In this document: positions 15,667-44,032 of the stretch, one piece after another
Layout: every line of letters starts with the position of its first letter
How positions within the stretch are numbered: the first letter of the stretch is position 1
Assembly: GCF_014138285.1 (NCBI RefSeq)
Contig: NZ_JACGXN010000003.1
Span: 372,001 to 436,000, forward strand
Origin: Phyllobacterium myrsinacearum
Lineage (GTDB): Bacteria > Pseudomonadota > Alphaproteobacteria > Rhizobiales > Rhizobiaceae
Direction of reading: 5' to 3'
Length of the DNA: 64,000 nucleotides
Program-made: the position numbers and the translations under genes
Notes under the pieces: model-generated
The model's database searches: none
Told to the model about the DNA's origin: nothing
Seen by the model: only the letters and a program-made list of their open reading frames with translations

Positions 15667-15706
15667 TATATTATAGATGTCAAATGAAATCTAATCGGAG
15701 ATTGAC

Positions 15707-16345
15707 ATGAGAGTGAGCCGCGCACAGGCCGATGAAAATCGGGAAACGGTAATCAATGTTGCGAGCCGTCTCTTTCGAGAGCATGGCTTCGATGGTATCG
15801 GCCTGAAGGATCTGATGAAGGGTGCTGGCCTAACGCAAGGCGGGTTCTATAAGCAGTTCTCGTCCAAGGACGACCTTGCCGCACTTGCGTCAAGGCGCGC
15901 GATGGAAAGCGCCACGCGGAGATGGTCGACTGCTGCAGCAACAAGCTCCAATCCCCTCGAAGCAGTGATGGAGTTCTACCTCTCCCTGGATCATCGTGGG
16001 GAAAAGGCAGACGGCTGCCCATTGGTGGCGTTGGGAGCCGACGCGGCGCGGCAAAGCGAAGAGGTCAGGCGTCCATTTGAGGACGGTATCCGCGCTCACT
16101 TTGAGGTGCTGGATGAGCTAATGAACGATGCCAAGAGCTCCAATCCCAGCGGCGAGGCAATGGCGATACTGTCTCTGATGGTGGGCGCCGTCACGCTATC
16201 CCGCATCATGCAGGACGAGAATTTGGCGCGAGGCATCCTCGACGCAGCCACTGACGAAGTCAGGCGCATTGCAAGCGGTGAAAATGGACGAACGAATGGA
16301 CCGGCGCGAGCACCGGACCAACCGGTGATTGAAGACTGTCTTTAA
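15707..16345 (+). CDS. TetR-family repressor, probable regulator of the RND pump
   Basis: 212 residues. The N-terminal HTH reads VINVASRLFREHGFDGIGLKD, with the recognition helix LTQGGFYKQFSSKDDLAA at about 43-60. The C-terminal ligand domain includes GCPLVALGADAARQ, as in the AcrR/NemR-type branch. The gene is divergent from the pump operon, with palindromes in the shared promoter. It is followed by a broken SDR gene that may once have been co-regulated. Confidence 0.9.
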   Translation: MRVSRAQADENRETVINVASRLFREHGFDGIGLKDLMKGAGLTQGGFYKQFSSKDDLAALASRRAMESATRRWSTAAATSSNPLEAVMEFYLSLDHRGEKADGCPLVALGADAARQSEEVRRPFEDGIRAHFEVLDELMNDAKSSNPSGEAMAILSLMVGAVTLSRIMQDENLARGILDAATDEVRRIASGENGRTNGPARAPDQPVIEDCL

Positions 16346-16436
16346 CCGTTCCTGTCTTTCCCAACACCAGATTACGGCCGGCAGGCCGACCGACATTTTC
16401 GAAATGCAATCCAGCATAAAGAAAGAAGTACTTTCG

Positions 16437-16729
16437 ATGAACAAGACCAATCTCGGCGTCGCCCTCGTGACGGGGGCATCCACCGGCATCGGGCAGGCAA
16501 CGGCCGCGGCCCTACAGAATGCGGGCTTTCGCGTGTTCGGAACCAGCCGTCGCCCAGACGAGCGACGGCGTTACCATGCTGACTTGCGACGTGGCCGACA
16601 ATGCATCCGTGGCGAAACTGGTGGATGACGTGCTGGCCGAGGCCGGGCGCATTGATCTGCTTGTCAATAATGCTGGCATGGGTCTGCTTGGTGGCGCGGA
16701 GGAATCCTCGAAACGGGATTTATGGAACT
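16437..16729 (+). pseudogene. Short-chain dehydrogenase (SDR) remnant, frameshifted and truncated
   Basis: The start MNKTNLGVALVTGASTGIGQ carries the SDR cofactor motif TGxxxGIG and has AAGAAGT upstream. After GTSRRP near 16550 the frame breaks. The next part, TMLTCDVADNASVAKLV... and IDLLVNNAGMGLLGG (the NNAG motif), is in another frame. Similarity stops at about 16711, at the sequence GGGATTTATGGAACT, so the catalytic Tyr-x-x-x-Lys part is missing. It is non-functional. It lies 91 bases after tetR on the same strand, so it may once have been a tetR-SDR operon. Confidence 0.85.
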
Positions 16730-24978: not shown

Positions 24979-25659
24979 TCATCCCGACGGACGAGACAGA
25001 AGCCCCCCCAATACCGTCTGCGTGATCGTTTTTGCAGCCATGTCATAGTCCTCTGCCGTTAGTTCGCTGACATTGAGCGCATCGCAGGCCAATGCCTCGA
25101 ATTCGGCATAGAATTGCGTCACCGACCACAACAGAATGAACAGGTGGCGCGCATCGATTTTCTCGATCTTTCCAACCGCCGCCCATGCATCGATTACCCT
25201 CGCCTTCTCGGATGTGACGGTTCGCATGTGGTCACGGGCCTTGATCGAGAGATGTCCTGCCCCCTGCAATATCTCGTTTGCGAAAAGGCGCGTCTCCGCG
25301 GCATTCTCCCTGGCATTGTCCAGCTTTGCGCGCACATAGGCCTCGATCGCATCGCTGGGCTCACGATCGGCAGAAATATGCCGGAACGCATCATCCCAAC
25401 TATGGATCAGGTGATCGATTGCCGCGTTGTAGATCTCCTCTTTTGACGAGAAATAGTAATAGACATTGCCCTTTGGCAGCCCTGAGGCTTTGGCGATTTC
25501 TACGATGCGCGCACCATCAAGGCCCTTGCGCGAGAATATCTCGACAGCCGCTGTCAGGATCTTGAGCACATTACGTGCTCTGATCGGCTCATCCGACGCG
25601 GCTTGCACGGTGAGCCCTTTTTCAGCGGAGGCATGAGGTTCGCGAAGTTCTTCTGCCAT
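24979..25659 (-). CDS. RutR-like TetR-family regulator
   Basis: 226 residues. The HTH is ILTAAVEIFSRKGLDGARIV with recognition helix LPKGNVYYYFSSKEEIYNAA. The C-terminal domain, with LFANEILQGAG, IDAWAAVGKIEKIDARHLFI and LLWSVTQFYAEF, closely follows that of E. coli RutR, the uracil/thymine-sensing regulator. It is divergent from an operon for nucleoside-type uptake and base metabolism. A RutR-type box lies in the shared promoter. Inference: it senses a pyrimidine or related base and represses the operon and itself. A start later in the 226 residues is possible, since the first ~28 residues are outside the family core. Confidence 0.85.
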   Translation of the reverse strand: MAEELREPHASAEKGLTVQAASDEPIRARNVLKILTAAVEIFSRKGLDGARIVEIAKASGLPKGNVYYYFSSKEEIYNAAIDHLIHSWDDAFRHISADREPSDAIEAYVRAKLDNARENAAETRLFANEILQGAGHLSIKARDHMRTVTSEKARVIDAWAAVGKIEKIDARHLFILLWSVTQFYAEFEALACDALNVSELTAEDYDMAAKTITQTVLGGLLSRPSG

Positions 25660-25786
25660 TGGTATCCCGTTATTTTCTACAAGGTTTTGTCTGAATAACC
25701 GCCCACGTCAACACTCCTTTCCCTTCAGAGGTACGTCAGTCCCATTGAGTGGTCCGTAAAGAATCATGGTGCCAATAAAAAAGAAG

Positions 25787-25802
25787 TTGACAATTTGGTC
25801 AA
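25787..25802. promoter_or_regulatory. RutR-type box TTGACAATTTGGTCAA
   Basis: Matches the known E. coli RutR consensus TTGACCA-NN-TGGTCAA at 13 of its 14 specified positions. It lies in the divergent region, 128 bases before the tetR start and 78 before the UNG-like start. Combined with a RutR-like regulator gene beside it, this strongly suggests direct regulation. Confidence 0.75.
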
Positions 25803-25818
25803 GTTTTTTCATGAAAAG

Positions 25819-25834
25819 CTGACAAAATTGTCAG
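25819..25834. promoter_or_regulatory. Second palindromic box CTGACAA-AA-TTGTCAG
   Basis: A perfect 7-bp inverted repeat with a 2-base spacer, 16 bases long. It has the same length and layout as the RutR-type box 32 bases upstream and similar half-sites (TGACAA). The centre-to-centre distance of 32 bases is about three helical turns, which would allow cooperative binding. It is 46 bases before the ATG of the UNG-like gene. Confidence 0.65.
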
Positions 25835-25879
25835 GTTCTTGGAGAGACCGCCAAAATCGACCATCTGGGGGAACTGCGA

Positions 25880-26731
25880 ATGCCAATATTGTTAAAGGCC
25901 GCCATGGAGGAATTTCTGTCAGATTGGTCCGCCGATCTGAACGCACCGTGGCGTTCGCTGATCGGGTGTGCGGTGCCAGACATTGACGGGATCGCATCCG
26001 AACTCGAGCTTGAAGTCTGGGAGCCGATCTTTCCGGTTCGTCGCGGCAAGCATTTTCCGGGCATGCCTGCAGGTGCACATTGCCTAAGGGCATTCGACGG
26101 CATCGCACCGGAGGAGGTCACCTGTGTCATTCTGGGCCAGGATCCTTATCCTGAACCGGCGTTTGCCACCGGACGTGCCTTTGAAGCCGGGAACCTCGCG
26201 GGATGGCACGAGCTCGACAAGATGTTCTCCAAGAGTATTCGGGCATATATGCAGATGATCGTGGCAGCGCGCACCGGCGACCTGTCTTATGCCCGCAGCT
26301 TCGACGACTGGCCGAAGACACTTGCTGCCATGCAAAGCGGTACAGTCGACATTCAGCATCCGTCCGATATCGCAGATTACTGGGTCTCCAAAGGCGTCCT
26401 GCTTCTGAATGCCTCGCTGACGCTCACCCGCTTCAGGGTAGATATGGATGAACATCAGACCAAAGGCCATCTCCGGCTCTGGCGACCGCTGATCGTGGAA
26501 ACCTTGCATGCGCTTGCCTTACGGGGAAAGCCACTGGTGTTCATTGGGTTCGGTGGCGCCGCCGCGGACACGCTCGCCGAAGTCGGCGTTGACGAGTCTG
26601 CCAGCGGGCATCTTCGCTGCGTTCTGCGTGATCATCCCGCACGCGCTGAAGCCGTCCTTTCCAAACCCAATCCATTCATTCTTTGCAACGATTATCTGGA
26701 GGAGATGGGCTCTCGTCCCATCGCATGGTAA
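25880..26731 (+). CDS. Uracil-DNA-glycosylase-fold protein (family 1-like, altered motif)
   Basis: 283 residues. Family-1 UDG features in order: CVILGQDPYPEPAFATGRAF (motif GQDPY at 86-90, catalytic Asp88 retained, but Pro91 replaces the usual His); VLLLNASLTLTR at 173-184 (UNG 'LLLNxxLTVR'); and RDHPARAEA with His252, then NPFILCNDYLEEMGSRPIAW, matching 'HPSPLSA...HFxxxNxyLxxxGxxPIDW'. It is longer than Ung (~225 aa), with an N-terminal extension and an insert at about 112-165. RBS GGGGGAAC precedes the ATG. It is the first gene of an uptake/catabolic operon, an unusual place for DNA repair. It may act on a modified base or nucleoside rather than genomic uracil (inference). Confidence 0.8.
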   Translation: MPILLKAAMEEFLSDWSADLNAPWRSLIGCAVPDIDGIASELELEVWEPIFPVRRGKHFPGMPAGAHCLRAFDGIAPEEVTCVILGQDPYPEPAFATGRAFEAGNLAGWHELDKMFSKSIRAYMQMIVAARTGDLSYARSFDDWPKTLAAMQSGTVDIQHPSDIADYWVSKGVLLLNASLTLTRFRVDMDEHQTKGHLRLWRPLIVETLHALALRGKPLVFIGFGGAAADTLAEVGVDESASGHLRCVLRDHPARAEAVLSKPNPFILCNDYLEEMGSRPIAW

Positions 26732-26733
26732 CC

Positions 26734-28365
26734 ATGGCGGCAACGAAAATATTCGATTTCATCGTCATCGGCGCCGGTTCGGCAGGCTGCGTTCTGGCAA
26801 ACCGCTTATCGGCCGATCCCGCCAACAAGGTGCTTTTGCTCGAGGCCGGCGGCCGCGACCTCAACCCGCTGTTCCGGTTGCCCATGCTGATGGGCAAGCT
26901 GTTCCATTCGGGCATTTATAACTGGCACTACCACACAGAGCCCGAGCCGCATCTGAATGGACGCTCTCTTTATTGGCCTCGCGGCAAGGTGCTCGGCGGC
27001 ACATCCACCATCAATGGTATGATCTATGTTCGTGGAAACCGGCACGACTACGACCGCTGGGCGCAGATGGGCGCCACGGGATGGTCCTACGACGAGGTGT
27101 TACCGGCGTTCCTCCGTTCAGAGGGCCATGTCCAACGCAACGGCGCCTACCACAATACCGCAGGGGAACTGACCGTCTGCCGGGCACGCGGCTGGAACAG
27201 CCTTCTCGATGTCTTCAGCGAGGCAGGCGGACAGGCGGGATATCCTCTCAATGACGATTTCAATGGTGAAGAGCAGGAAGGTTTCGGTCGCTATGACTTC
27301 ACCATAGCCAAGGGCAAACGCTGCTCGGCAGCCCATGCCTTCCTGCGTCCGGCAAAGAAACGCCCGAATCTGACGATCATCACTCGCGCCCATACAAGGC
27401 GCGTTCTTATCGAGAATGGCCGAGCTATCGGCGTCGAGTTCAGTCAAAAAGGCAACATTTCGATAGTCTATGCAGACCGTGAGGTGATCCTGTCAGCTGG
27501 TGTTGTCAATTCGCCGCAGATTCTCATGCTTTCGGGGATCGGTGCTGCCGACGAACTCGCACAGCACGATATCCCCATCGTCCAGGACCTTCCCGGTGTG
27601 GGCAAAAACCTTCAGGATCATGTCGATTGCGTCATGTCCTATGAATGCAGGGAGCCGGTCACACTCTATTCGGACCTGCGCGCAGACAAGCTTACGTGGT
27701 CGATGATCCAAGGCATGCTGTTCGGAAAAGGGATCGCTACGACTTTCCCCTATGAAGCCGGAGCCTTCGTCAAATCGCGCCAGGACCTGGTTGCGCCCGA
27801 CATCCAGCTCCATTTCATGCCGGCGCTCGAAAAAACAGCGAACCTGCATTTTCCAAACCCGTTCAAGAAAGAGCGTGTGGAGGCCAATCATGGCTTTTCA
27901 TTGCGTGTCGGGCCGGTCAATCCAGAGAGCCGCGGCGAGATCAGGCTGCGCTCCGCTGATCCGATGGACAGGCCGTGCATCACCGCGAACTATCTGCAAA
28001 CAGAATTTGATATTCGAACGATGATCAACGCGATCCGTATGACGCGGGACATTATCAAGCAGACAACTTTCGACAAGTATCGCGGCAAGGAGCTTGCTCC
28101 TGGTCCCGCCGTTGAAAGCGACGCGGAAATGATCAAGTGGCTGCGTGCCAATGCCATGACGACGTTCCACCCGGTCGGTACCTGCAAAATGGGCAATGAC
28201 CAAATGGCGGTCGTCGACTCTCGATTGAAAGTTCACGGCATAAAGGGCCTGCGCGTCGCGGACGCCTCGATCATGCCAATCATTTCAAGCGGCAACACGA
28301 ATGCCCCGGCGATCATGATCGGGGAGCGGGCCGCTGAATTCATTCTCAAGGAGCCAACCATATGA
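26734..28365 (+). CDS. GMC-family FAD oxidoreductase (choline-dehydrogenase-like)
   Basis: 543 residues from MAATKIFDFIVIG; an ATG three codons earlier at 26725 is also possible. FAD-binding VIGAGSAGCVLANRLS is followed by the GMC signature 1 region RGKVLGGTSTINGMIYVRGN and signature 2 GVVNSPQILMLSGIG. The active-site histidine is in TTFHPVGTCKMG and the C-terminal SSGNTNAPAIMIGERAAE. It should oxidise an alcohol group with FAD, in cytosol or at the membrane. The start lies 2 bases after the stop of the UNG-like gene, and its stop overlaps the next start (ATGA). A nucleoside or sugar alcohol is a plausible substrate given the operon. Confidence 0.9.
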   Translation: MAATKIFDFIVIGAGSAGCVLANRLSADPANKVLLLEAGGRDLNPLFRLPMLMGKLFHSGIYNWHYHTEPEPHLNGRSLYWPRGKVLGGTSTINGMIYVRGNRHDYDRWAQMGATGWSYDEVLPAFLRSEGHVQRNGAYHNTAGELTVCRARGWNSLLDVFSEAGGQAGYPLNDDFNGEEQEGFGRYDFTIAKGKRCSAAHAFLRPAKKRPNLTIITRAHTRRVLIENGRAIGVEFSQKGNISIVYADREVILSAGVVNSPQILMLSGIGAADELAQHDIPIVQDLPGVGKNLQDHVDCVMSYECREPVTLYSDLRADKLTWSMIQGMLFGKGIATTFPYEAGAFVKSRQDLVAPDIQLHFMPALEKTANLHFPNPFKKERVEANHGFSLRVGPVNPESRGEIRLRSADPMDRPCITANYLQTEFDIRTMINAIRMTRDIIKQTTFDKYRGKELAPGPAVESDAEMIKWLRANAMTTFHPVGTCKMGNDQMAVVDSRLKVHGIKGLRVADASIMPIISSGNTNAPAIMIGERAAEFILKEPTI

Positions 28366-28682
28366 TCGTCGAACATCGCACCTATACATTCCGCCCGGGG
28401 ACAGTCGACGGCTGGCTGAAAAAATACGAGACCGAGGGCCTGCCGATCCAGAAACGGCACCTCAACACATTCCTCGGCCTTTACGTCAGCGAGATCGGTC
28501 ACCTGCACAGGACGGTTCTGATGTGGCGCTATGACAGTCTTGCCGACCGGGAGGCAAGACGGGCAGCCATGTATGCTGACCCGGATTGGCAGGCATTCAT
28601 CTCCGGCGTCTGGTCTCTCGACGCCATTCAGAGTCAGGACGTGATGATTATGAATCCGGCACCATTTTCTCCCGGCGCCTGA
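28362..28682 (+). CDS. NIPSNAP-family protein
   Basis: 106 residues beginning IVEHRTYTFRPGTVDGWLKK, the standard NIPSNAP opening ('E.RtY.l.pG....w...'). It contains the internal W-x-Y-x-S-x-A-x-R-x-x-R segment MWRYDSLADREARRAAMYAD. These are ferredoxin-like dimeric alpha/beta barrel proteins, often next to oxidoreductases. Their function is usually unknown. It overlaps the GMC gene by 4 bases, so the two are co-translated and may act together. Confidence 0.85.
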   Translation: MIVEHRTYTFRPGTVDGWLKKYETEGLPIQKRHLNTFLGLYVSEIGHLHRTVLMWRYDSLADREARRAAMYADPDWQAFISGVWSLDAIQSQDVMIMNPAPFSPGA

Positions 28683-28705
28683 GACGGGCAGTGTCTGAAG
28701 CGAGA

Positions 28706-28727
28706 GGGGTCCAAAATCCTGGACCCC
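28706..28727 (+). other. Intercistronic stem-loop GGGGTCCA-N6-TGGACCCC
   Basis: A perfect 8-bp stem with a 6-base loop in the 124-base gap between the NIPSNAP and binding-protein genes. No T-run follows, so it is more likely an mRNA-stabilising or processing hairpin, or a weak terminator, than a full intrinsic terminator. The gap could also hold a second promoter for the transporter. Confidence 0.45.
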
Positions 28728-28806
28728 GATGACGACCGGGCGGCGAATAAAGCAGCCCCAATAACAAGTTGCTGACATACAACCTCCAGAGCAAGGAAAT
28801 GGGAAC

Positions 28807-29877
28807 ATGAACAACAAGACTTCAAATGAAATGAATATGTTGCATAGGCCGGTCGGTCGCCGCACACTCCTCAAGGCCTCGGCCGGATTGGCCGCTATTA
28901 CAATTGCAGGTGGCCGGCTGACAAATGTTGCGCGTGCTGCGGGCGGCCTCGTCGCGCTGGTTCACACGCAGGCAGCGGGTGATGCTGGCCCGGTAGACTC
29001 AATGATCGCCAAGCTCACACAGCTTTCCAAGGAGTTGGGTTTTCAATATCGCGCGGTATACGCTCAAGACCCCGCGACCTATGAGACCATTTTCCGCACT
29101 CTCGGCGATGCTGGCGCGGCAGTGATCGTTTCGACCTTCAACGAGGTCGCAGAACCCTTCAAAGCGCTCGCCCCTTCCTACCCCGATACCAAGTGGATTC
29201 AACTTTTCGCTGATCCTTTCGAGCCGGCGATCCCCAATATCGTGACGGTGTCCTATGATTACTATCTCGGCTGTTATCTCTCCGGCATATTTGCTGCGCG
29301 TGTAAGCAAGTCGGGTAAGCTTGGCTTCATCGGAGGCGTATCTATTCCGCCAATCAATGCCGACTACAATGCATTCAAGTCCGGCGCCTTGTCCGTTCGC
29401 CCGGATGCATCGGTCAAAATCGCCTTTGCCGGCTCTTTCCAGGACCCGGCAAAGGGGCAGGAAATCGCAACCCAGATGTATTCGAGTGGCATCGACTTTA
29501 TCCAGACTGATGCAGCAGCGACCGACTTCGGTATCATTGCCGCAGCAAAAGAGGCGGAAGGCCGCTTGGTGAGCGTACTCGATCCTGCCCAATTCCCCCA
29601 AGGTCCCAAATCCGTAATTTCAATCGTCGGTCTCGACTTCGGAACCTCGCTCTATAATGAAGTAAAGAAGGCGTTTGGCAGTGGATTTGCCGGCGGGACC
29701 CATGAGCATACCGGTTTGGGAACAGGCGTTATTGAATTCATCCCGTCGCCACTCTTCGCTGAACAGGGGCCGGCTGATATTGTGGCCAAGGCAAAGGAAG
29801 CAGCGCCCGAGATTGCGGCAGCACGAGCAGCGATCCTCAATGGATCACTGAAGGTTCCGTTCAATACGAAGCTTTGA
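28807..29877 (+). CDS. BMP-family ABC transporter substrate-binding protein (nucleoside/purine type)
   Basis: 356 residues. The export signal contains a twin-arginine-like GRRTLLK (17-23), a hydrophobic stretch, then a cleavage region near ARAAGG. The mature fold shows the Bmp (PnrA-like) pattern: SKSGKLGFIGGVSIPPINAD, YNAFKSGAL and DPAKGQEIATQMYSSGIDFI. BMP proteins bind nucleosides or purine-related compounds in the periplasm. The ATPase and two permeases follow directly, giving a complete importer. Tat use is inferred from the motif alone. Confidence 0.9.
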   Translation: MNNKTSNEMNMLHRPVGRRTLLKASAGLAAITIAGGRLTNVARAAGGLVALVHTQAAGDAGPVDSMIAKLTQLSKELGFQYRAVYAQDPATYETIFRTLGDAGAAVIVSTFNEVAEPFKALAPSYPDTKWIQLFADPFEPAIPNIVTVSYDYYLGCYLSGIFAARVSKSGKLGFIGGVSIPPINADYNAFKSGALSVRPDASVKIAFAGSFQDPAKGQEIATQMYSSGIDFIQTDAAATDFGIIAAAKEAEGRLVSVLDPAQFPQGPKSVISIVGLDFGTSLYNEVKKAFGSGFAGGTHEHTGLGTGVIEFIPSPLFAEQGPADIVAKAKEAAPEIAAARAAILNGSLKVPFNTKL

Positions 29878-29899
29878 CCCGCGACTGGATCATGCCCCG

Positions 29900-31459
29900 A
29901 TGACAAAAGTCAGCCTACCCATATTCGAATGCCGCGATGTGACCGTTCGCTACGGCCATATCCTCGCGCTCTCCAATGTCGGAGCCGTTTTCGAACGTGG
30001 TGTGATCCACGCCGTGGTCGGCCAGAATGGCGCAGGCAAGACGACGTTTGCCCGCGTCCTGGCTGGTCTCGTCCGCCCTGCATCGGGCCAGATCAAGATC
30101 GACGGCCGCCCGCTTGCGGGTGGCAATGTCAAAGACGCCCGGCGTTCGGGTGTTGAACTCGTCCACCAGAGCTTCGCGCTGCCCCCTTCTTTCACAGTCG
30201 CCGAAGCAATGCAGTTCGGCGCGCAAGGCGGAAGATTCTTTACAAAGGCAAATCTTGAAAAGCGCTGGCAGCCCCACCTTGACGCGCTCGACGTGAAGGT
30301 GAGCGCGAGGCAGCGTATCCGCGACCTGCCGGTCGAGACCCAACAAGGGGTTGAAATCGCCAGAGCCCTTGTCTCGGATGCAAAACTGCTCATCTTGGAT
30401 GAACCCACGGCAGTCCTGGCTCCCGAAGGCGTTGAAAAGCTCTTCGACCGAGTTCGGCGCCTCAAGGAGCGCGGCGTGACCGTCATCCTTATCCTGCACA
30501 AAATACGGGAAGTTCTGGCAATTGCGGACACGGTCACGGTTCTGCGTGGCGGAAAGCTCGTTGATGGGCCGCTGCCCTGCAACGGGATTGACGCAAACAG
30601 GCTGGCAGAGCTGATCATTGGTCCAGCAGTTGCCCGCAACCTCAAACCGGAAGACAAGGCAGCTTTGACCGGAGCAGCAGTTATCTCGCATGCCGAACAG
30701 CATGCAGACATCCACGCTGCCCCCGTCCTCAAGATGCGCGCTGTTTCCACACGCGCCGATCCAGAAGGCCCCGCGCTCGACGGGATCACCCTCGACATTC
30801 GTCCAGGCGAAATTATCGGCGTCGCAGGCGTTGAGGGCAATGGGCAGAAAACACTTGTGCGCGCAATCTCAGCACTGACCGATGTCGTCAATGGCGAGAT
30901 TTCCATTGATGGCACAAATGTGACCCGCGCCCCACTCGCCGCACGACGGGCGAGCGGACTGCGCATTATTCCCTTCGAGCGGAATGTTGAAGGACTTAGC
31001 ATGACCAGTTCCCTTTGGGAAAATTGGTCCGCACGTAATCTTCTTCAGATACCACTCTTGTCCACCATCAGTCCCTCCGCCATCCGCAGGCAATGCGATA
31101 CCGCCCTCAAGCAATGGGATGTCCGCTATTCCGACGTCAGTCAGCGTGCGGGTTCCTTATCGGGCGGAAACGCCCAGAAGGTAATCCTGTCGCGCGAGAT
31201 GGATGAAGACGCACGTCTTATTCTTGCGGCGCAGCCAACACGTGGTCTGGATATCTGCGCAACATCTTTCGTATGGGAGTCGATGCGAAACGCCCGCGCG
31301 CGCGGGTGTGGTTTATTGTTCATCTCATCGGATCTCGACGAAATCCTCGACATTTCGGACCGTATCATTGTCATGTTGTCCGGGCGCATCGTCGCCGAAT
31401 TCCGCCCCCCTTATGACCTTGCCGCAGTCGGCGCAGCCATGACTGGAATGCTTAGATGA
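29900..31459 (+). CDS. ABC transporter ATPase, duplicated-domain, BMP/nucleoside type
   Basis: 519 residues with two ABC domains. Domain 1 has Walker A GQNGAGKTT (41-49), Q-loop LVHQSFALPPSFTVAE and Walker B LLILDEPTAVL. Domain 2 has the degenerate P-loop GVEGNGQKT, signature LSGGNAQKVILSREM and a Walker-B-like LILAAQPTRGLDI, as is normal for this sub-family, where only one site hydrolyses ATP well. It energises the importer formed with the two permeases. Its stop overlaps the first permease start by 4 bases. Confidence 0.93.
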   Translation: MTKVSLPIFECRDVTVRYGHILALSNVGAVFERGVIHAVVGQNGAGKTTFARVLAGLVRPASGQIKIDGRPLAGGNVKDARRSGVELVHQSFALPPSFTVAEAMQFGAQGGRFFTKANLEKRWQPHLDALDVKVSARQRIRDLPVETQQGVEIARALVSDAKLLILDEPTAVLAPEGVEKLFDRVRRLKERGVTVILILHKIREVLAIADTVTVLRGGKLVDGPLPCNGIDANRLAELIIGPAVARNLKPEDKAALTGAAVISHAEQHADIHAAPVLKMRAVSTRADPEGPALDGITLDIRPGEIIGVAGVEGNGQKTLVRAISALTDVVNGEISIDGTNVTRAPLAARRASGLRIIPFERNVEGLSMTSSLWENWSARNLLQIPLLSTISPSAIRRQCDTALKQWDVRYSDVSQRAGSLSGGNAQKVILSREMDEDARLILAAQPTRGLDICATSFVWESMRNARARGCGLLFISSDLDEILDISDRIIVMLSGRIVAEFRPPYDLAAVGAAMTGMLR

Positions 31460-32502
31460 TTGACCGCTTCGTCTCCGTTTTCCGTGCGCTGATCTTCATT
31501 GTGCTTGGCCTGGCGCTTTGCGGTGTGATCTTTCAGGCTGCAGGCTATTCAGCCCCCCTGATGTTCCAATCCATCGCCGATGGCGCATTTCTTAGACCCG
31601 GCGCACTGCAGCAGGTGCTTCGCTGGGGACTTCCGCTGTTTATAACGGCCGTTGGCGTAGCCGTCTCCTTTCGAGCCGGCTATTTCAATATCGGTGCCCA
31701 AGGCCAGTTCTACATGGGAGCCATCGCGGCCGCCTTCATGGCGGAATGGCTCAATGGTGCACCCGCACCTGTCCTTATCACCGCTTGCTTTCTTGCCGGG
31801 ATGACAGGTGGGGCACTCTGGGCGCTTTGGCCTGGACTGCTGCGATTGAAATCTGGCACCGATGAAGTGATTACCACACTGATGGGCAACTTCATTGCAG
31901 GCCTCGTTCTGCTCTATGTCACCGCTGGGCCCCTCAAAGATCCCTCGGGAACCGGACAGCAGGCGTCAAGCCGGCCACTTGCGAGTGTCTATCGGATCAG
32001 TAACTCGCTCGGTCTGTCTCCAACAATCATTATCATCGCCGTTATCGTTGGTCTTGCGATGTGGTTTCTGGTCAATCGAACTTCCTTTGGCATACTTTCT
32101 GGCCTCGCCGGCCGCAACGCGACAATGGTCGAGTGGCAAGGCGCGCGGACCTGGCACATAGGGCTGGCAAGCTTTCTCCTCAGCGGCGCGCTTGCCGGCC
32201 TTGCGGGAACTATGGAATTCATGGGGCCAAATGGACGGCTGACCGGCGGTTTTCTGCCCGGCCACGGGTTCACTGCGATCCTGATCGCGCTCGTTGCCAA
32301 CTTCTCAGTTGTCGGTACGGCATTTGTGGCGCTGTTTTTTGGCGGGCTTGCGTCCGCCGCCCTCTACCTGCCCATCATGGCTGGCCTGCCCTCCTCGGCA
32401 ATCGACATCATCAATGCAGCCATCGCTCTCTTCATCACCGCAAAATCCAGTACCGTCGACCGGATAGCGAAACTCGGAGGACGGATATGGAAGACTTCGT
32501 AA
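31456..32502 (+). CDS. ABC transporter permease 1, BMP/nucleoside type
   Basis: 348 residues, hydrophobic, with about eight membrane segments. It carries the family block FRAGYFNIGAQGQFYMGAIA and, near the end, GHGFTAILIALVANFSVVG. It matches the BPD_transp_2 permeases of nucleoside/BMP importers. The end overlaps the next permease by 16 bases. Confidence 0.92.
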   Translation: MIDRFVSVFRALIFIVLGLALCGVIFQAAGYSAPLMFQSIADGAFLRPGALQQVLRWGLPLFITAVGVAVSFRAGYFNIGAQGQFYMGAIAAAFMAEWLNGAPAPVLITACFLAGMTGGALWALWPGLLRLKSGTDEVITTLMGNFIAGLVLLYVTAGPLKDPSGTGQQASSRPLASVYRISNSLGLSPTIIIIAVIVGLAMWFLVNRTSFGILSGLAGRNATMVEWQGARTWHIGLASFLLSGALAGLAGTMEFMGPNGRLTGGFLPGHGFTAILIALVANFSVVGTAFVALFFGGLASAALYLPIMAGLPSSAIDIINAAIALFITAKSSTVDRIAKLGGRIWKTS

Positions 32503-33380
32503 TCGCCATCCTGCGCTCAGGCACTCCGCTGATTTACGTGACACTTGCCGGTGTCATTGCTCAGCGAGCAGGTATCTGGCATCTCGGCCTTGAAGGTCTG
32601 ATGATTGCCGGAGCTTGCGCGACTGTTCTCGGCATTGTGCTCATGCAATCAATCTGGCTCGCACTTCTCGGCGCCATTATGGTCTGCGTTCTCGGATCTA
32701 TTCTGTTCTGGTTCGTGGTCGAAAAACTCAAGGCCAACCAAATTATCGCAGGCCTCGGGCTGACGGGACTGGGGCTTGGCGGTACTGCCCTCGCCGTCCA
32801 GTCGATATTCGGGACGCAGGCGGCTGTAAGCGCGCCATTCGGTCTGCCGCGCATCGGCTCTGCCTTTGGATCATTCGGGTCCTTATCGATCCTCGTCTTG
32901 ATCATGCCGATAATCGTTTTGGCAATGTGGTTTATGTTGCGACGAACCCGTTTTGGACTGCGCCTGGCTGCCGCTGGCGAGCACCCTTTTGCCGCGCGCA
33001 GTGTCGGCATCAATCCGGCCCTAATGCGCCTCGTTGCATTGATAATCAGCGGCGTGCTTTGTGCATTGGCTGGCGCAGAGCTTGCGGCGGGCAGCCTTCA
33101 GATCTTTGCCCAAAACATGACAGCCGGACGAGGGTTCATGGGGTTTGCCGCTGTCATATTTGGCGCTGGACATCCCATCGGCGCGGCTTTGGCAGCCCTG
33201 TTCTTTGCCATTGTTGGCGCACTTGGCATCAGGGCGCAGCTAACCTTCGGCGATCGCGTACCGCATGACCTGCTGCTCGCCTTGCCTTACCTGGCTACCG
33301 TTCTCGGCATCTGGCTCAGCACGCACCTGCGCGGGGGCACCAAAGCTGCCAGTGGCTTCGGTGAACTGCGCGACCAATAG
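32487..33380 (+). CDS. ABC transporter permease 2, BMP/nucleoside type
   Basis: 297 residues. The ATG at 32487 follows GGAGGACGGAT and overlaps the previous gene by 16 bases. The same frame is open far upstream, but that part is a shadow of permease 1. Typical block: AQRAGIWHLGLEGLMIAGAC; late block MTAGRGFMGFAAVIFGAGHP. It pairs with permease 1 to form the membrane channel. The C-terminus ends in a short hydrophilic tail. Confidence 0.92.
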   Translation: MEDFVIAILRSGTPLIYVTLAGVIAQRAGIWHLGLEGLMIAGACATVLGIVLMQSIWLALLGAIMVCVLGSILFWFVVEKLKANQIIAGLGLTGLGLGGTALAVQSIFGTQAAVSAPFGLPRIGSAFGSFGSLSILVLIMPIIVLAMWFMLRRTRFGLRLAAAGEHPFAARSVGINPALMRLVALIISGVLCALAGAELAAGSLQIFAQNMTAGRGFMGFAAVIFGAGHPIGAALAALFFAIVGALGIRAQLTFGDRVPHDLLLALPYLATVLGIWLSTHLRGGTKAASGFGELRDQ

Positions 33381-33437
33381 ACACCGGCCCAGCGTCGCTC
33401 CACATCGGAGCCGACGCGGCGGCACGACGAATAGGAC

Positions 33438-34955
33438 ATGCCCATGCCCCAGACGCTGATCAAGAATGCCACCCTCTTGACGATGTGTGCTCAGAACGGA
33501 AGCAAGCCGTTCGAAGGCGACATTCTGATCGAGAAGGGTCGCATCGCTGCCATCGGCCAAAACCTCGTGGCCAATCCGAAGGCGACCGTTATGGAGGGCC
33601 GCAACCGCCTCGTGATGCCAGGCCTCATCAATGCCCATACCCATTCGAGCGAAACTTTCTTCCGTGGCCGATATGAAGGCATGCCATTGGAAATCTGGTT
33701 ACTCTACGCCTACCCATTATTGATGGGTCCAGTCATTGATGACAGATTACTTTACCTGCGCAGTCTTCTTCTTGCCATGGAATCACTCCGCAATGGCGTC
33801 ACAACGATTTGCGACGACTTCTTCGATCCACCTGCACATGATCTCTCACGGCTAGCGACTGTTTTTAGGGCCTATGAGGATGCGGGCATCCGCGCCAATA
33901 TATCGAGCGCGGCAATGAATGTGCATACTCTGGATGCCTTGCCCTACGCTCGGAAGGTTATGCCACTCCATCTCCAGGAAAAGCTTGATTTCGGGCCACC
34001 GATGTCGGCCGATGCCTACATGGATTATTGCCGTTCCGTCTTTGCGTCACTGCACGGCAGGGCCGGTCGGCTCAACTTCATGATCGCACCGTCGGCGCCG
34101 CAACGCTGCACCCCGGAATTGCTGCAGGCTTGCCATGCACTCGCTGTTGACATGGGCGTGCCGCTGCATACCCATGTCCTGGAAACCAAGACACAGGCCG
34201 TGACTGGCCATGAAATGTACGGCAAGAGTCTGATTGCCTACATGCACGATCTGGGCGTTCTGTCCCGCAACACCACCATCGCCCATTCCGTCTGGGTGAG
34301 CGAGAAAGACATTGCAATGATGGCAGAAGCGGGATGCTCAATTGCCCACAACGCCATCTCCAACCAGAAACTCGGAGCTGGGATTGCTCCCGTTCGCCGT
34401 CTGATGAATGCCGACATAACCATTGGTCTTGGGACCGATGGTGTTTCGTCAAATGACACTGCTCGCATCTTTGACGTCATGCGGGTGGCCGGGTTGATCC
34501 ATAGTGTTTCAGGCCCGGATCATGATCAGTGGATTCGTGCCGACGATATCCTCACCATGGCAACGATCGGCGGGGCACGCAGTGCCATGCTCGAGAATGT
34601 CACCGGTTCGCTCGAAGTCGGCAAGGCCGCTGATCTGCTGATCCTTGATTTAACGACCCTCTATTTCACCCCGCTCAACGATATCGTCAAGCATCTCGTC
34701 TACGCAGAGAATGGTTCTTCCATCGAAACGGTGATGATAGCGGGGCAGATCGTTGTTCATGATGGCCGCCTGCAAACAATCGACGAAGCCGCGATACTGG
34801 CCGAGATCCGTGAGCTTCTCCCGACGCACCTCGCCGCGCATGCCGAACTGGAAGCCCGGAACGCAGCGTTCCACTCCACCATGGCCGAAATCCATCGGCG
34901 CGCCACGTCCACAGACATTGGCATGAACCGCTATGCCGGAGATCCCGGCACGTGA
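33438..34955 (+). CDS. Amidohydrolase of the SsnA/TrzA (guanine/cytosine-deaminase-like) group
   Basis: 505 residues. Metal ligands in amidohydrolase order: H67 and H69 in GLINAHTHSSETFF; a histidine in PLHTHVLETKTQ; a histidine in NTTIAHSVWVS; and an aspartate in IGLGTDGVSSND. The 'GTDG..SND' form and preceding NAISNQKLGAG match aminohydrolases acting on heterocyclic bases (SsnA/TrzA, 8-oxoguanine deaminase). It is cytosolic and hydrolytic, releasing ammonia from a base or triazine-like ring. It is the last gene of the RutR-box operon, 57 bases after permease 2, so the imported compound is likely an aminated base or nucleoside. Confidence 0.9.
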   Translation: MPMPQTLIKNATLLTMCAQNGSKPFEGDILIEKGRIAAIGQNLVANPKATVMEGRNRLVMPGLINAHTHSSETFFRGRYEGMPLEIWLLYAYPLLMGPVIDDRLLYLRSLLLAMESLRNGVTTICDDFFDPPAHDLSRLATVFRAYEDAGIRANISSAAMNVHTLDALPYARKVMPLHLQEKLDFGPPMSADAYMDYCRSVFASLHGRAGRLNFMIAPSAPQRCTPELLQACHALAVDMGVPLHTHVLETKTQAVTGHEMYGKSLIAYMHDLGVLSRNTTIAHSVWVSEKDIAMMAEAGCSIAHNAISNQKLGAGIAPVRRLMNADITIGLGTDGVSSNDTARIFDVMRVAGLIHSVSGPDHDQWIRADDILTMATIGGARSAMLENVTGSLEVGKAADLLILDLTTLYFTPLNDIVKHLVYAENGSSIETVMIAGQIVVHDGRLQTIDEAAILAEIRELLPTHLAAHAELEARNAAFHSTMAEIHRRATSTDIGMNRYAGDPGT

Positions 34956-35264: not shown

Positions 35265-35386
35265 ATTTTGACCAGGACCTTTCCCTTCCCTGGCGGTTCC
35301 ACGTCTAGCTCGAGGATTTCCAAAGGCTTTCCTGATGCAAGGGCGACGGTAGCGCGTGACCGCTTTCTTTTATCGACGCGGACCAT
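35265..35386 (-). pseudogene. Zinc alcohol dehydrogenase N-terminal fragment
   Basis: The frame [20 protein letters not shown] followed by [14 protein letters not shown] matches the first strands of class III alcohol/S-hydroxymethylglutathione dehydrogenases. It stops where the zinc-binding 'GICHTD' should begin, at the junction with the LysR fragment. Its 5' end overlaps in another frame the C-terminus of the MocC-like gene. Confidence 0.65.
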
Positions 35387-36201
35387 AGGTCACGCACCAT
35401 CTCCCGCAACAACTGAGCCTCTGCCCACCTGTCCGTGGTATCGTTGCCGTCCCTCCCCGTGATAGCATAAGGCTTGGGCCCTAGTTCGCAGGTGAAGACC
35501 AAATCAGCGTCTGTGGCGGAACGAGACCGCCAGCGAGTGAAGCCGTACTCCCACCATCCCATGAAAAGATCGACCCATGGACGATGATGTGAAAAGGTGA
35601 TTTCGATCTGAACCTGTTCGCGCGACGCCACCCGCCCGTGAAAGCTATGCGCGTTGTCCAATATTCGACGGATCGATGTGTGGTTCGCCTCTTGCACCGG
35701 CACGGCAAATTCCCGACCAACGAGAAAATGTGAAAGGTCGGCCAGGAGCGGTAGATCCGGCCGGTGATCGAGGAGATCTAGCGTGAAATGGAGATCGGTG
35801 GTCATTCGATCCCTGTGGGTCTCGATGAACACCGGTACACCAGCCTTATTGGCAAGGTCCATCCATCCGTCAAGAAATGGCAGACAGTCCTCTACGCGTC
35901 GCGGCCGGATGTCGGGTTGCAAGTTGATATGCGTGACGGGAAACTCTCTTGCCAGTTCAAGCGTCGGGATCAGGTCATCAACGCTGGTGGGAAAGCAAAC
36001 GCCTTCTATGCGCAGACCGGTACCGGCGATCGCATCGTTCAATCGTGCCACATCTTCACGGTTGGTGTAATGCGCGCTCACCCCGTCAAATCCCCCGTGC
36101 ACAATCATGGCGATAATCTCCTCGAGACTATGCTCATGCCCGTCGGTGTGGCGGCGCTCCATGGCCCAGAGCGATTGAAACACAAGGAGTTTCTGCATCA
36201 C
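35305..36201 (-). CDS. mocC: MocC-like sugar-phosphate isomerase/epimerase-family protein
   Basis: 298 residues, AP-endonuclease-2-like TIM barrel: [35 protein letters not shown] and [20 protein letters not shown], with acidic/His metal ligands (E in FIETHRD; D and H in [10 protein letters not shown]). It is related to inositol-pathway enzymes (IolE/IolI type) and, by neighbourhood, to MocC of rhizopine catabolism. The last ~20 residues (after VRDLWSAS) are read through an alcohol-dehydrogenase fragment, so the native C-terminus may have been replaced by a fusion. Its ATG overlaps the MocF-like stop. Confidence 0.75.
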
Positions 36202-37403
36202 GCAGCCCGCACATTTTTTAACAGCGATTTTAGGTTTACAGCCGGATCCGCCAATAGATCGGGGTCAGGGCTGATACCGGCGGCAATTAGCATTTCCGCA
36301 AGCTTGATGTCCTTCGCAACGCTATTTCCTGTCCCGAGACCAGCGGCAGCTATTAGCCGACCTTCATCGAGATAAAACTCCATCTCTCCATTCGAAAGCG
36401 GCCGGACTACACTTGCGTGACCGGGCTGCGACAATCCGGCGACCTGTAAGCCGAGATCATACTGATCAGACCAGAACCACGGGATAGTCGTGAAGTTAAC
36501 CGTCGTGCCCGCCATGTTGCGGGCAGCCGTTTCCGCTTGGGCACGAGCATTGCGCCAGCATTCAAAACGGACATGGCTGCCATTAGCTTGTAGCACCGCG
36601 GCGCAGTCGCCAGCGGCATAGATGTGAGGATCGGATGTGCGTAAGCCTGCATCTGTCAGGACGCCGTTGCCGGTTGCCAGTCCTGCTGCTTCCGCCAAGC
36701 TGATTTCCGGAACGACACCAATCGCCGACACCGTGACGTCGGCTGGTACCGCAGTTCCGTCGGACAGTATCACCGCGCCGACTGTGATCGCCGCAATACC
36801 CTGTCCGAGATAAAAGCTGACACCTTCTTCCACATGGCGGGCATGAAGCTTGGCCGCAAAACGGGCAGGAACAGCGCGCCCGAGCGGTCGGGGTGCAGCC
36901 TCGATAACACTGACAGCCACGCCCTTTCCCCGCAGTACCGCTGCGAGCTCCATACCGATCAACCCGCCGCCGACGATGGCGAAACGCGCGCCATGATTGG
37001 CAAGAGAGAAGATCGCGCGCGCGTCGGAGTACGTCCTGAAGTCCAGCACATATTCGGCGCCTGTGCATGTCAGCCGCCTGGGACTGGCTCCCGTGGCAAG
37101 AAGCAATGCATCGTACTTCACAGCATTGCCGTCATCGAGGGTCAGTAATTTCGAGTGAACGTCAAGCTTCGCTGCGGATGTGCCTTGATAATAGGCGATG
37201 CGTGCGGCTCTCAGCGCGTCTTTCGTGCAGATTGATTTTAACTGCACGCCCTCGCTCGCCGGCTTTGACAACGGCGGCCGTTCATAGGGAAGATGTGGTT
37301 CGGCTCCGATCAAGGTGACGGTCTCCGAATAGCCGGCTTCACGTAAAGCGAATGCCGCCCGGGTACCACACTCACCTGCACCAACGATGACTATCCCGTC
37401 CAT
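36198..37403 (-). CDS. mocF: MocF-like NAD(P)H:ferredoxin reductase
   Basis: 401 residues. The FAD site is GIVIVGAGECGTRAAFALRE near the N-terminus, NAD site FAIVGGGLIGMELAAVLRGK near the middle, and second FAD motif DPHIYAAGDCA. This is the Rieske-dioxygenase-type ferredoxin reductase family with a C-terminal reductase domain (IPWFWSDQYDLGLQVAGLSQ). It passes electrons from NAD(P)H to the MocE-like Rieske ferredoxin. It follows a hairpin terminator after the binding-protein gene and overlaps the mocC-like start by 4 bases. Confidence 0.85.
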   Translation of the reverse strand: MDGIVIVGAGECGTRAAFALREAGYSETVTLIGAEPHLPYERPPLSKPASEGVQLKSICTKDALRAARIAYYQGTSAAKLDVHSKLLTLDDGNAVKYDALLLATGASPRRLTCTGAEYVLDFRTYSDARAIFSLANHGARFAIVGGGLIGMELAAVLRGKGVAVSVIEAAPRPLGRAVPARFAAKLHARHVEEGVSFYLGQGIAAITVGAVILSDGTAVPADVTVSAIGVVPEISLAEAAGLATGNGVLTDAGLRTSDPHIYAAGDCAAVLQANGSHVRFECWRNARAQAETAARNMAGTTVNFTTIPWFWSDQYDLGLQVAGLSQPGHASVVRPLSNGEMEFYLDEGRLIAAAGLGTGNSVAKDIKLAEMLIAAGISPDPDLLADPAVNLKSLLKNVRAA

Positions 37404-41594: not shown

Positions 41595-42671
41595 TCAGTC
41601 TGGTCGCGTCGGTAGACGCTGTTCCGTCTTCACATCAAAAAGGTGTAGTCTGTCGAGGTCTGGCGTCATCACAAGCTTATCGCCCGCATGAAGGTCTAAC
41701 CGTTCTCTTACAGTCGCTACAAGTTGATCTGTTCCCAGCATGGTAGTCACTTGAGTCTCGGCGCCAGTCGGCTCGATTAGGACAACCTCCGCTGTGACTG
41801 TACCGTGTCCAATTGTGATGTGCTCCGGGCGAATGCCATAGATGATTTCCATCCCTTGTGTTACGCATGCTCCATGCGGCAACGGCAATTCGCCTCCGCC
41901 GTCGGCGATGAATACAAGCGGCTCGGTAGTACTAACCTTACCACGAATGAGATTCATGCCCGGAGAACCGATGAAACCCGCTACGAACAGGTTCGCCGGA
42001 CGGTCATACAGGTCAAGCGGCGAGCCAATCTGTTCTACGTATCCGTCTTTCATAACAACAATTCGATCTGCCATCGTCATGGCTTCGATTTGGTCATGAG
42101 TCACGTAAATCGTCGTTGTCTTGAGCCGCTGATGCAATTGTTTTATTTCCGAACGCATCTGAACGCGCAGTTTCGCATCCAGGTTCGACAATGGTTCGTC
42201 AAACAGGAAGACTTGCGGATTTCTGACAATTGCACGGCCCATCGCCACACGTTGGCGCTGCCCGCCCGAAAGGTTTCGAGGATAACGGTCAAGAAGATGT
42301 TCAAGACCGAGTATCTGGGCAGCATCACGAACCCGCTGTTTTGTCTGCTCTTTCGGTGCTTTCGCCAGTTTCAACGAAAAACCCATATTCGCCTCCACTG
42401 TCAGATGCGGATAAAGCGCGTAGGACTGGAAGACCATTGCGATATCGCGCTCTTTGGGCGCAACGTTGTTCACGACCTTGCTGCCGATGGAAATCTTGCC
42501 ATCGGAAATTTCCTCAAGCCCCGCGATCATGCGCAACAAGGTTGACTTACCACAGCCGGAAGGACCAACGAGGATCACGAATTCGCCGTCCTCGATATCA
42601 ATATCCACTCCGTGCAAAACTTCGAAGTGCCCGTAACTTTTGCGGGCATTGGCCACACTTACTGACGCCAT
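41595..42671 (-). CDS. ABC transporter ATPase, MsmK/UgpC type (CUT1 sugar importer)
   Basis: 358 residues. Walker [10 protein letters not shown] (36-44), Q-loop [20 protein letters not shown], signature [20 protein letters not shown] and Walker [17 protein letters not shown]. The C-terminal regulatory TOBE domain contains YGIRPEHI. It energises the importer made by the binding protein and two permeases encoded upstream (44994-48021). It is the last gene of the leftward operon, and the two carbohydrate-enzyme genes lie between it and the permeases. Confidence 0.93.
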
Positions 42672-42733
42672 ATTTTTTCTCCGGCTCTGTGTTCGTATAT
42701 GCCGCCTCCGCTTGCCAGATGGAGGCAGGATTT

Positions 42734-44032
42734 TTATCTTGTTGCTGTGGCAGTTGCATAGGGAGCCAATGCCGCGTCGATCGCAGCGAGGCAGAGTTCT
42801 CGTGCCTTGGGAACGATCCGCTTTAATACGACGTCCGGGTATAATCGCCCCAAATGTTGGCTGATCAGGGTTTCCGGAATATCGTCATCAAGCCGGTTAA
42901 ACAATCTGTCGACTGCATCAGATGCCCGCGGGTCAGGCCAGTAATAGCGAATGCGATCGCTGTAGCTGAAATGCCTCTGGAGCCGTTCTTCCTCGGCATT
43001 TCCGTTATAGTGGCCTGACCAGTACTGTGGCTGCTCGACCATGATCGTTTCCATCCTCGCAATCAGACCCGTGTCTCTCGGTTTACCGGCGACCACATCA
43101 GCGATCGCGTCCAGACCATATAACGCTTCACGCAATGCAAAAGTCAGCCCGGGCCCAACCTTCAAAATGGCAAAGCCACCATCAACAAGAGCGGACAGCG
43201 CTTCAGTTGGTTGATAGTCCGTTGAATGCGCTTCAAAAAGCATACCCGGCATTTCGTCCAACGCGGCAATGAGATTCTTGGCCCGATCAGGCCTGTACAA
43301 AGCAATATTGGCATTGCCGAATTCCACGCCGGGCTGAACCACGATGCCTATAACGCGTTCCATCGCGGAAGCCACACCCGCCTTGGCAAATGACGTCTGA
43401 TGAACTGCTAGCGTTTTCAACGCCGCCTCCGCCTTTGTAAGCTCCAGTTCTTCCAGCACATGGGTCGCGCCCCCCGGAGGCGGAACCTCCGTCCCAATGA
43501 TGTAGACCGGAGGCCGCAAGCCAGAACGAAGCGCTGCTTCTTCAGCAATTTTAGCAAGGCGGGCAGCGCGGGAGGCGGTCAATTCGTCTGCCAGCGCTAG
43601 TGGCTCGGCTGCACATCCCATTGAGGTATCGAGATGAATTTTCTCGAACCCGGCCTCAACGTAGGCCGCGACCATAGCCTCTGCACGTATCATCGCTTCT
43701 TCAGCCGGAAGCTTCTTCCATGGATTAGGACCGAGATGGTCTCCTCCAAGAATGATGCGTTCTACCGGAAAGCCGGTCTTGGCTGCGATGCTGTGGATGA
43801 ATCGCCGAAAGTCGGCTGGTTTCATGCCGGTATAGCCACCTTCTTGATTAACCTGATTGCAGGTGGCTTCGATGAGAACCGCTCGGCCTTCCACAACAGC
43901 ACGCCTCAATGTAGCTTCAATAACCAGGGGATGAGCCGAGCAAACGGACATGATACCACGGGGGAGAGGCAAATTTCTTGCACCGAAAAGCTTTCGAAGT
44001 GCGATCTGACGGTTCTCATCAATTGACGTCAT
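42734..44032 (-). CDS. GatZ/KbaZ-family D-tagatose-bisphosphate aldolase 'non-catalytic' subunit
   Basis: 432 residues. Family blocks: [76 protein letters not shown] and [13 protein letters not shown]. Members accompany the class II aldolase GatY/KbaY in galactitol and N-acetylgalactosamine breakdown, but no catalytic partner gene is in this cluster. It may work with an aldolase encoded elsewhere or have its own activity. Its start overlaps the SIS-protein stop by 4 bases. Confidence 0.9.

What the first reader, a model, noticed from the sequence alone, without database searches (positions are those of the whole stretch)
24979..34955. RutR-box operon: UDG-fold protein + GMC oxidoreductase + NIPSNAP + BMP importer + base deaminase, candidate new base/nucleoside pathway
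Seen: a RutR-like TetR gene divergent from seven genes that overlap or are closely spaced (UNG-like, GMC, NIPSNAP, BMP binding protein, ATPase, two permeases), with an SsnA/TrzA-like amidohydrolase 57 bases later. Known: RutR senses uracil/thymine, BMP importers take up nucleosides, and SsnA/TrzA enzymes deaminate heterocyclic bases. Inference: the operon imports a (modified) nucleoside, oxidises its sugar or side chain with the GMC enzyme, cleaves or binds the base with the UDG-fold protein, and deaminates it. This does not match the Rut or reductive pyrimidine routes.
Basis: partly seen in the sequence, partly recalled or inferred. Interest (0 to 1): 0.78.

Follow-up and report, generated by a model that had tools for sequence, protein, structure and literature searches.

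The report
Pyrimidine-nucleoside operon with uracil-glycosylase relative
Soil and plant-associated bacteria carry a gene set that appears to import and break down building blocks of RNA or DNA, and it includes a relative of a DNA-repair enzyme that seems to have lost its grip on DNA, which would make it an unexpected metabolic enzyme if tests confirm it.

Summary
The operon is real. TetR/UDG/GMC/NIPSNAP/BMP/ATPase/two permeases recur together in Hyphomicrobiales and on Sinorhizobium meliloti megaplasmids. Exact TGAC-N6-GTCA boxes occur in 45 of 46 regulator-to-operon gaps (two or more in 42); shuffles average 0.1. The regulator keeps four of five RutR uracil contacts. Relatives add RihA-like hydrolase, thymidine phosphorylase, VOC and amidohydrolase genes in varying sets, so the theme is pyrimidine nucleosides.

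The parts
24979..25659 (-). RutR-family TetR regulator (TetR_C_3); predicted uracil-type sensor
   Evidence: Pfam TetR_C_3 119.9 bits; RutR equivalog 146.5 bits against cut-off 368; RutR uracil contacts W77, Y97, W167 kept in 46 of 46 rows and Q171 in 44 of 46, Q179 in none
25788..25801 (.). operator box 1 TGACAATTTGGTCA
   Evidence: exact TGAC-N6-GTCA at least once in 45 of 46 intergenic regions, shuffles mean 0.1
25820..25833 (.). operator box 2 TGACAAAATTGTCA, 32 bases from box 1
   Evidence: two or more exact boxes in 42 of 46 regions, counted from the listing
25880..26731 (+). UDG-fold protein, predicted small-molecule uracil N-glycosidase
26734..28365 (+). GMC oxidoreductase, choline-dehydrogenase-like
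   Evidence: NCBIfam PRK02106 subfamily 687 bits against cut-off 605; nearest PDB 9lq0, 8b7s
28362..28682 (+). NIPSNAP protein, role unknown
   Evidence: Pfam NIPSNAP 101.3 bits
28807..29877 (+). BMP/PnrA-type binding protein; RR leader by eye
   Evidence: Pfam Bmp 135 bits; nearest PDB BmpA 9q1u, then 6pi5; the S. meliloti counterpart is annotated with a twin-arginine signal
29900..31459 (+). ABC importer double ATPase
   Evidence: Pfam ABC_tran, two stretches
31456..32502 (+). ABC importer permease 1
   Evidence: Pfam BPD_transp_2 116.9 bits
32487..33380 (+). ABC importer permease 2
   Evidence: Pfam BPD_transp_2 105.9 bits
33438..34955 (+). TRZ/ATZ-type amidohydrolase, predicted deaminase
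   Evidence: Pfam Amidohydro_1 187.1 bits; HxH, H..E and GTDG motifs in 29 of 29, HS[VI]W in 27 of 29

Best explanation
A uracil-responsive operon for uptake and breakdown of pyrimidine nucleosides, most likely with an unusual or oxidised sugar. Steps: (1) the BMP importer brings in a uracil- or cytosine-type nucleoside [inferred from family and linked genes]; (2) the amidohydrolase, where present, deaminates the cytosine-type compound [inferred]; (3) the GMC enzyme oxidises an alcohol, probably on the sugar [inferred]; (4) the UDG-fold protein, which kept the uracil pocket and catalytic Asp/His but lost the DNA wedge, hydrolyses the N-glycosidic bond of the small molecule and frees uracil [residues and fold shown, reaction inferred]; in relatives a RihA-like hydrolase with an altered ribose site or a thymidine phosphorylase works beside it [genes shown, roles inferred]; (5) uracil lifts repression by the RutR paralogue at two boxes [residues and boxes shown, response inferred] and enters the reductive pathway encoded elsewhere in the genome [genes shown]. 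NIPSNAP and VOC roles are open, perhaps on the sugar product.
For: Core gene set conserved; double operator; uracil contacts of the regulator; linked hydrolase nearest RihA and linked DeoA a thymidine phosphorylase; tail tally of 43 loci; UNG fold; catalytic residues kept, wedge lost, new invariant R121, R184, H197; acidic pI against basic family-1 UNG controls; operon UDGs form one group apart from UNG, 99/99 support; linked hydrolase lost D8, D15, D242 equivalents in 14 of 15; a second hydrolase of this type sits with another BMP importer, SDR, aldonate-dehydratase-like and sugar-lactonase-like genes; own RutR and PreA cluster.
Against: No assay, ligand or expression data. 24 of 43 loci, the window's included, have neither hydrolase nor phosphorylase in the operon, but thymidine phosphorylase exists elsewhere in 14 of 15 genomes tested and a hydrolase match in 16 of 18 (three of these have one in the operon too), so UDG is not shown to be the only glycosidase. 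S119, equivalent to a phosphate-contacting Ser of UNG (recalled), is kept in 44 of 44, which could mean residual nucleic-acid or nucleotide binding. A low pI does not exclude DNA binding. Three of the aspartates lost from the linked hydrolase may simply make it inactive. The sugar-oxidation step rests on family and context only. The UDG, GMC and NIPSNAP genes can be absent (G113).
Confidence: 0.5

Rival explanations
1. The UDG-fold protein is a real DNA repair enzyme, co-regulated to remove bases that get into DNA when the operon imports an analogue or unbalances dUTP pools; GMC and NIPSNAP do the catabolism.
For: All five UNG catalytic and pocket residues kept in 44 of 44, S119 too; the fold is UNG; no other match to this UDG model in the window's genome, so it might even supply UNG activity there.
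Against: Wedge dipeptide lost in 44 of 44 and acidic make-up against basic controls; 6 of the 20 family genomes with a full-length operon UDG also show a family-1 UNG match (G106, G163, G175, G178, G234, G236); it is the first gene of a catabolic operon.
Confidence: 0.2
2. One reading: a nucleoside with a modified base is imported, GMC oxidises the base side chain (for example 5-hydroxymethyl), the UDG-fold protein frees the oxidised base and the amidohydrolase deaminates it.
For: GMC enzymes include a 5-(hydroxymethyl)furfural oxidase (6f97); oxidised pyrimidines are good leaving groups for TDG (recalled).
Against: Tyr90, the residue that bars C5 substituents in UNG (recalled), is invariant in 44 of 44; linked RihA- and DeoA-type enzymes handle ordinary pyrimidines; the altered ribose site in the linked hydrolase points to the sugar.
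Confidence: 0.12
3. The UDG-fold protein and the altered hydrolase are non-catalytic uracil or nucleoside binders (carrier, sensor or ligand-protecting proteins), or act on a uracil conjugate that is not a nucleoside.
For: The linked hydrolase lost presumed metal ligands in 14 of 15; the loci L101, L102 and L113 have none of the four tail genes.
Against: Catalytic Asp and His of the UDG fold are invariant, which a mere binder would not need; DeoA or canonical RihA-like genes sit in some of the same operons.
Confidence: 0.12

Closest known systems
[quoted passage not shown]
   Same: Fold, GQDPY, LLLN Asn, catalytic His
   Different: No HPSP(L/Y) wedge, acidic, longer (278-283 aa in 22 rows), new invariant Arg/His, encoded in a nucleoside operon
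Rut pathway and RutR
   Same: RutR-family regulator and RutR-like palindromes
   Different: No rut enzymes among the operon proteins; usually two boxes; below the RutR equivalog cut-off; the genome has a second, closer RutR
BMP/PnrA nucleoside ABC importers
   Same: Binding protein, fused ATPase, two permeases
   Different: Own subfamily; the NCBIfam B6-transporter cut-offs are missed by all four proteins; ligand unknown
RihA-type pyrimidine nucleoside hydrolases (in relatives, not in the window)
   Same: Fold family; D10, D14, E166, N168, H241 equivalents kept
   Different: D8, D15, D242 equivalents replaced by L, Q, G in 14 of 15
2'-O-methyluridine hydrolase RK9NH and its cluster (PMC6278475, parts 1-2 of 5 read)
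   Same: Hydrolase for a sugar-modified pyrimidine nucleoside next to another nucleoside gene
   Different: Fragment resembles an actinobacterium and carries an aldolase; no UDG-fold, GMC or NIPSNAP gene mentioned in the parts read

Membership tests
Family 1 UNG | UNG fold | tested here: met
Family 1 UNG | GQDPY, LLLN Asn, HP catalytic His | tested here: met
   44 of 44
Family 1 UNG | HPSP(L/Y) DNA-intercalating wedge | tested here: not met
   two-residue deletion and Ser to Ala in 44 of 44; HPSP in 29 of 29 UNG rows
Family 1 UNG | NCBIfam UNG cut-offs | tested here: not met
   best 70.9 bits against cut-off 162
Family 1 UNG | uracil excision from DNA | not testable with these tools
   needs an assay
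BdiUng-like UDG class | sequence relationship to BdiUng | not tested
   its paper was not held and I had no sequence of it
RutR (TIGR03613 equivalog) | score over cut-off | tested here: not met
   146.5 against 368
RutR | uracil contacts W77, Y97, W167, Q171, Q179 | tested here: inconclusive
   W77, Y97, W167 in 46 of 46, Q171 in 44 of 46, Q179 in none (residues from passages of PMC10891134)
RutR | palindromic box at its own promoter | tested here: met
   exact TGAC-N6-GTCA in 45 of 46 regions; that this fits the E. coli consensus TTGACCA-NN-TGGTCAA is recalled
BMP/PnrA importer | Pfam Bmp over cut-off with ABC ATPase and two permeases | tested here: met
BMP/PnrA importer | nucleoside ligand | not testable with these tools
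   needs a binding assay
Choline dehydrogenase BetA (TIGR01810 equivalog) | score over cut-off | tested here: not met
   606.7 against 732.1; the broader PRK02106 subfamily is met
TRZ/ATZ/SsnA amidohydrolases | Pfam Amidohydro_1 and metal/catalytic motifs | tested here: met
   none of the 25 NCBIfam rows shown reaches its cut-off
Canonical nucleoside hydrolase (relatives) | DxDPGxDD and LHDP aspartates | tested here: not met
   14 of 15 altered, L098 canonical

The most novel reading that the evidence does not exclude
A UDG-superfamily enzyme has left DNA repair and become a nucleosidase. GMC oxidation turns the 5'-CH2OH of a pyrimidine nucleoside into a carboxylate, which takes the place of the 5'-phosphate that UNG needs next to its uracil (recalled), held by the invariant S117/S119/R121 loop; D88 and H252 then release uracil, leaving a sugar acid. 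The altered hydrolase in relatives handles the same oxidised sugar.
Probability: 0.15. Interest if true: 0.88.

Novelty: new variant of a known kind. Interest (0 to 1): 0.72.

Why it matters
If right, it would be a nucleosidase built on the uracil-DNA glycosylase fold; I know of none described, and searches listed none in the library held (85 matched 434 papers, of which 12 were listed). It would open a catabolic route for pyrimidine nucleosides in rhizobia, including S. meliloti strains that carry it on symbiosis-type megaplasmids, and it gives named genes, a predicted inducer (uracil) and a uracil-auxotroph selection with which to test it. It also warns that 'uracil-DNA glycosylase' annotations of this clade may be wrong.

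Tried and rejected
C5-modified base as the substrate: weakened by invariant Tyr90. UDG as the only N-glycosidase of these genomes: rejected, because DeoA or hydrolase matches occur elsewhere in nearly all tested; G296 and G439 have no hydrolase match but have DeoA, G820 has a hydrolase match but no DeoA. Vitamin B6 importer (NCBIfam names): cut-offs missed by all four proteins. MTA/SAH deaminase for the amidohydrolase: equivalog cut-off missed; its ribose-binding Glu looks absent in the alignment (residue role recalled). Distant UDG relatives: Variovorax L104 is next to an amidohydrolase, Azospirillum L105 near GMC, GDPD and amidohydrolase genes, and L092 next to an amidohydrolase gene and a GDPD-like one named by eye; suggestive but too divergent to use; two others (L106, L107) lack such neighbours in their annotation. 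I first took PDB 5x3g for BdiUng; it is Nitratifractor salsuginis UNG. Literature: no paper on this gene set among those listed by searches (52, 84 and 85 matched 206, 184 and 434 papers and listed 15, 12 and 12). The paper on BdiUng was not held.

Counts: the tally of 43 loci leaves out L092 (no operon), L014 (broken second copy in the genome of L008), L093 (same place as L010), L081 (contig end), L103 (same operon as L108, broken frames) and L132 (no UDG); it adds the window, L108, L113, L114; tail genes were counted only if over 45% identical to the query. L100's stretch ends about 200 bases after its phosphorylase gene, so a further gene there is not excluded. The 46 regions and 46 rows still include L014 and L093; the region of L113 lies between TetR and BMP. 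One search uses 44 operon UDGs, 29 UNG rows and 3 relatives (L105, L107, L115 dropped as fragments). One search uses 15 hydrolases (that of L108 not included). Control UNG start codons were chosen by script. The shuffles keep base content only.
Full report
What is there. The window 24979-34955 holds a divergent RutR-family TetR gene and eight genes on the plus strand: a UDG-fold protein, a GMC oxidoreductase, a NIPSNAP protein, a BMP/PnrA-type importer (binding protein, double ATPase, two permeases) and a TRZ/ATZ-type amidohydrolase. Gaps between the plus-strand genes run from -16 to 124 bases.

Conservation. A scan of genome contigs gave 13 loci in Hyphomicrobiales, all with the nine genes in the same order. 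A profile of the UDG found full-length relatives (over 350 bits) in 20 of 247 family genomes and 11 of 297 order genomes, own genome included in both. In the class sample 2 of 385 and in the phylum sample 4 of 398 genomes matched at 1e-12; besides the own genome only G820 (class) and G1133 (family) carry the operon, the other two being weak partial matches. None of the three other genomes of the window's genus in the sample matched, so the operon is patchy. In the plasmid collection 46 records matched, 34 of them Sinorhizobium or Ensifer; I fetched two S. meliloti records, and both carry the operon with VOC, hydrolase and amidohydrolase (frames in the first are broken). In the reverse direction, this type of BMP protein occurs in 7 of 199 order genomes, all with the UDG, and in 16 of 188 family genomes, of which 15 have the UDG.

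The exception helps. G113 (locus L132) keeps TetR, importer, VOC, the altered hydrolase and the amidohydrolase, and adds a canonical-motif RihA-like hydrolase and a thymidine phosphorylase, with two boxes 34 bases apart. A search of that stretch at E up to 10 found only short chance-level pieces of UDG, GMC or NIPSNAP (best GMC E 0.074). So UDG-GMC-NIPSNAP behaves as a module that other glycosidases may replace.

Tail genes name the theme. After permease 2, 43 loci show: amidohydrolase only 18, hydrolase only 6, VOC+hydrolase+amidohydrolase 5, hydrolase+amidohydrolase 4, VOC+amidohydrolase 3, VOC+thymidine phosphorylase 3, all four 1, none 3. The hydrolase scores best with RihA, pyrimidine-specific, though under its cut-off (276.8 against 433); the phosphorylase passes the PRK05820 thymidine phosphorylase cut-off (517.9 against 269) and misses that of TIGR02643 (521 against 570.7).

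Regulation. Exact TGAC-N6-GTCA occurs in 45 of 46 regulator-to-operon gaps, two or more times in 42, mostly 32-34 bases apart; base-shuffled gaps average 0.1 of 46, at most 1. The exception is G820, with two one-mismatch boxes. In the window these are the only two exact sites in 64 kb. The RutR residues that hold uracil are W77, Y97, W167, Q171 and Q179 (passages of PMC10891134); the first three are invariant in 46 of 46 operon regulators, Q171 is kept in 44, and Q179 is replaced by L, V, I or M in all 46 (a three-row alignment puts A there). The window's genome has just two TetR_C_3 proteins; the other is a closer RutR (52% against 35% identity to the E. coli segment) with all five contacts. 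It lies beside PreA and, by eye from sequence starts without a family scan, a dihydropyrimidinase-like and a Zn-hydrolase-like gene.

A second altered glycosidase. In 14 of 15 operon-linked hydrolases the D8, D15 and D242 equivalents are L, Q and G, while D10, D14, E166, N168 and H241 equivalents stay. In canonical enzymes D10, D15 and D242 bind the calcium that holds the ribose diol (recalled). In the family sample 14 of 247 genomes have a hydrolase at E 1e-125; 12 have it in the operon, G113 in the variant operon, and G201 has one with canonical motifs elsewhere. A second altered copy in G121 sits with a different BMP importer, an SDR, an aldonate-dehydratase-like and a fuconolactonase-like gene, the last two under their NCBIfam cut-offs, which links this hydrolase type to sugar-acid breakdown.

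Mechanism. I therefore favour import of a pyrimidine nucleoside, oxidation of its sugar by GMC, release of uracil by the UDG-fold protein (helped or replaced by the altered hydrolase, RihA or DeoA types), deamination by the amidohydrolase where cytosine is involved, and uracil as both inducer and product for the reductive pathway. Shown: gene set, boxes, residues, fold, linked genes. Inferred: ligand, order of steps, every reaction. NIPSNAP and VOC remain open.

What speaks against it. No assay exists. In 24 of 43 loci, the window's included, the operon has neither hydrolase nor phosphorylase, which would make UDG the glycosidase there; yet thymidine phosphorylase is encoded elsewhere in 14 of 15 genomes tested and hydrolase matches occur in 16 of 18 (the window genome's copy is split over two frames). 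S119 is shared with UNG. The altered hydrolase could be inactive. A DNA-protecting role is not excluded.

Literature. Searches listed no paper on this gene set. PMC5343134 (passages) treats RutR as a regulator of pyrimidine catabolism with taxon-specific motif changes. PMC7093131 (passages) reports nucleoside binding by a BMP protein, a purine nucleoside in that case. PMC6278475 (parts 1-2 of 5) describes hydrolysis of 2'-O-methyluridine by soil metagenomic RK9NH and a uracil-auxotroph selection. PMC8307549 (two passages) reviews UNG-like families.

Noticed in passing
L132 (G113) 5600-16500: Variant operon with the same regulator and importer but without UDG, GMC and NIPSNAP; carries VOC, altered hydrolase, amidohydrolase, canonical-motif RihA-like hydrolase and thymidine phosphorylase.
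   Followed up: yes
L134 (G121) 575-10026: Separate BMP-importer cluster with two nucleoside hydrolases (one of the altered type), SDR, aldonate-dehydratase-like and sugar-lactonase-like genes: possible oxidative route for a nucleoside sugar.
   Followed up: partly
L104 9995-10858, L105 10001-19732, L092 5954-10746: Distant UDG-fold relatives in stretches with amidohydrolase genes, two of them also with glycerophosphodiesterase-type genes and one with a GMC oxidoreductase gene.
   Followed up: partly
L131 10157-11091 (window genome C1:1381157-1382091): RihA-like hydrolase of the window's own genome lies in two different frames, so it may be broken or mis-sequenced.
   Followed up: no
window 4031-10699: 2222-aa autotransporter with many Ig-like and cadherin-like repeats.
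   Followed up: no
window 41595-51306: Sugar cluster on the minus strand: ABC importer ATPase and binding protein, GatZ/KbaZ-like, SIS domain, BadF-type ATPase and GH4 genes.
   Followed up: no
window 35305-37403: Ferredoxin-reductase-like gene (36198-37403) and a weak xylose-isomerase-type TIM-barrel ORF (35305-36201) next to the operon's end, on the other strand.
   Followed up: no
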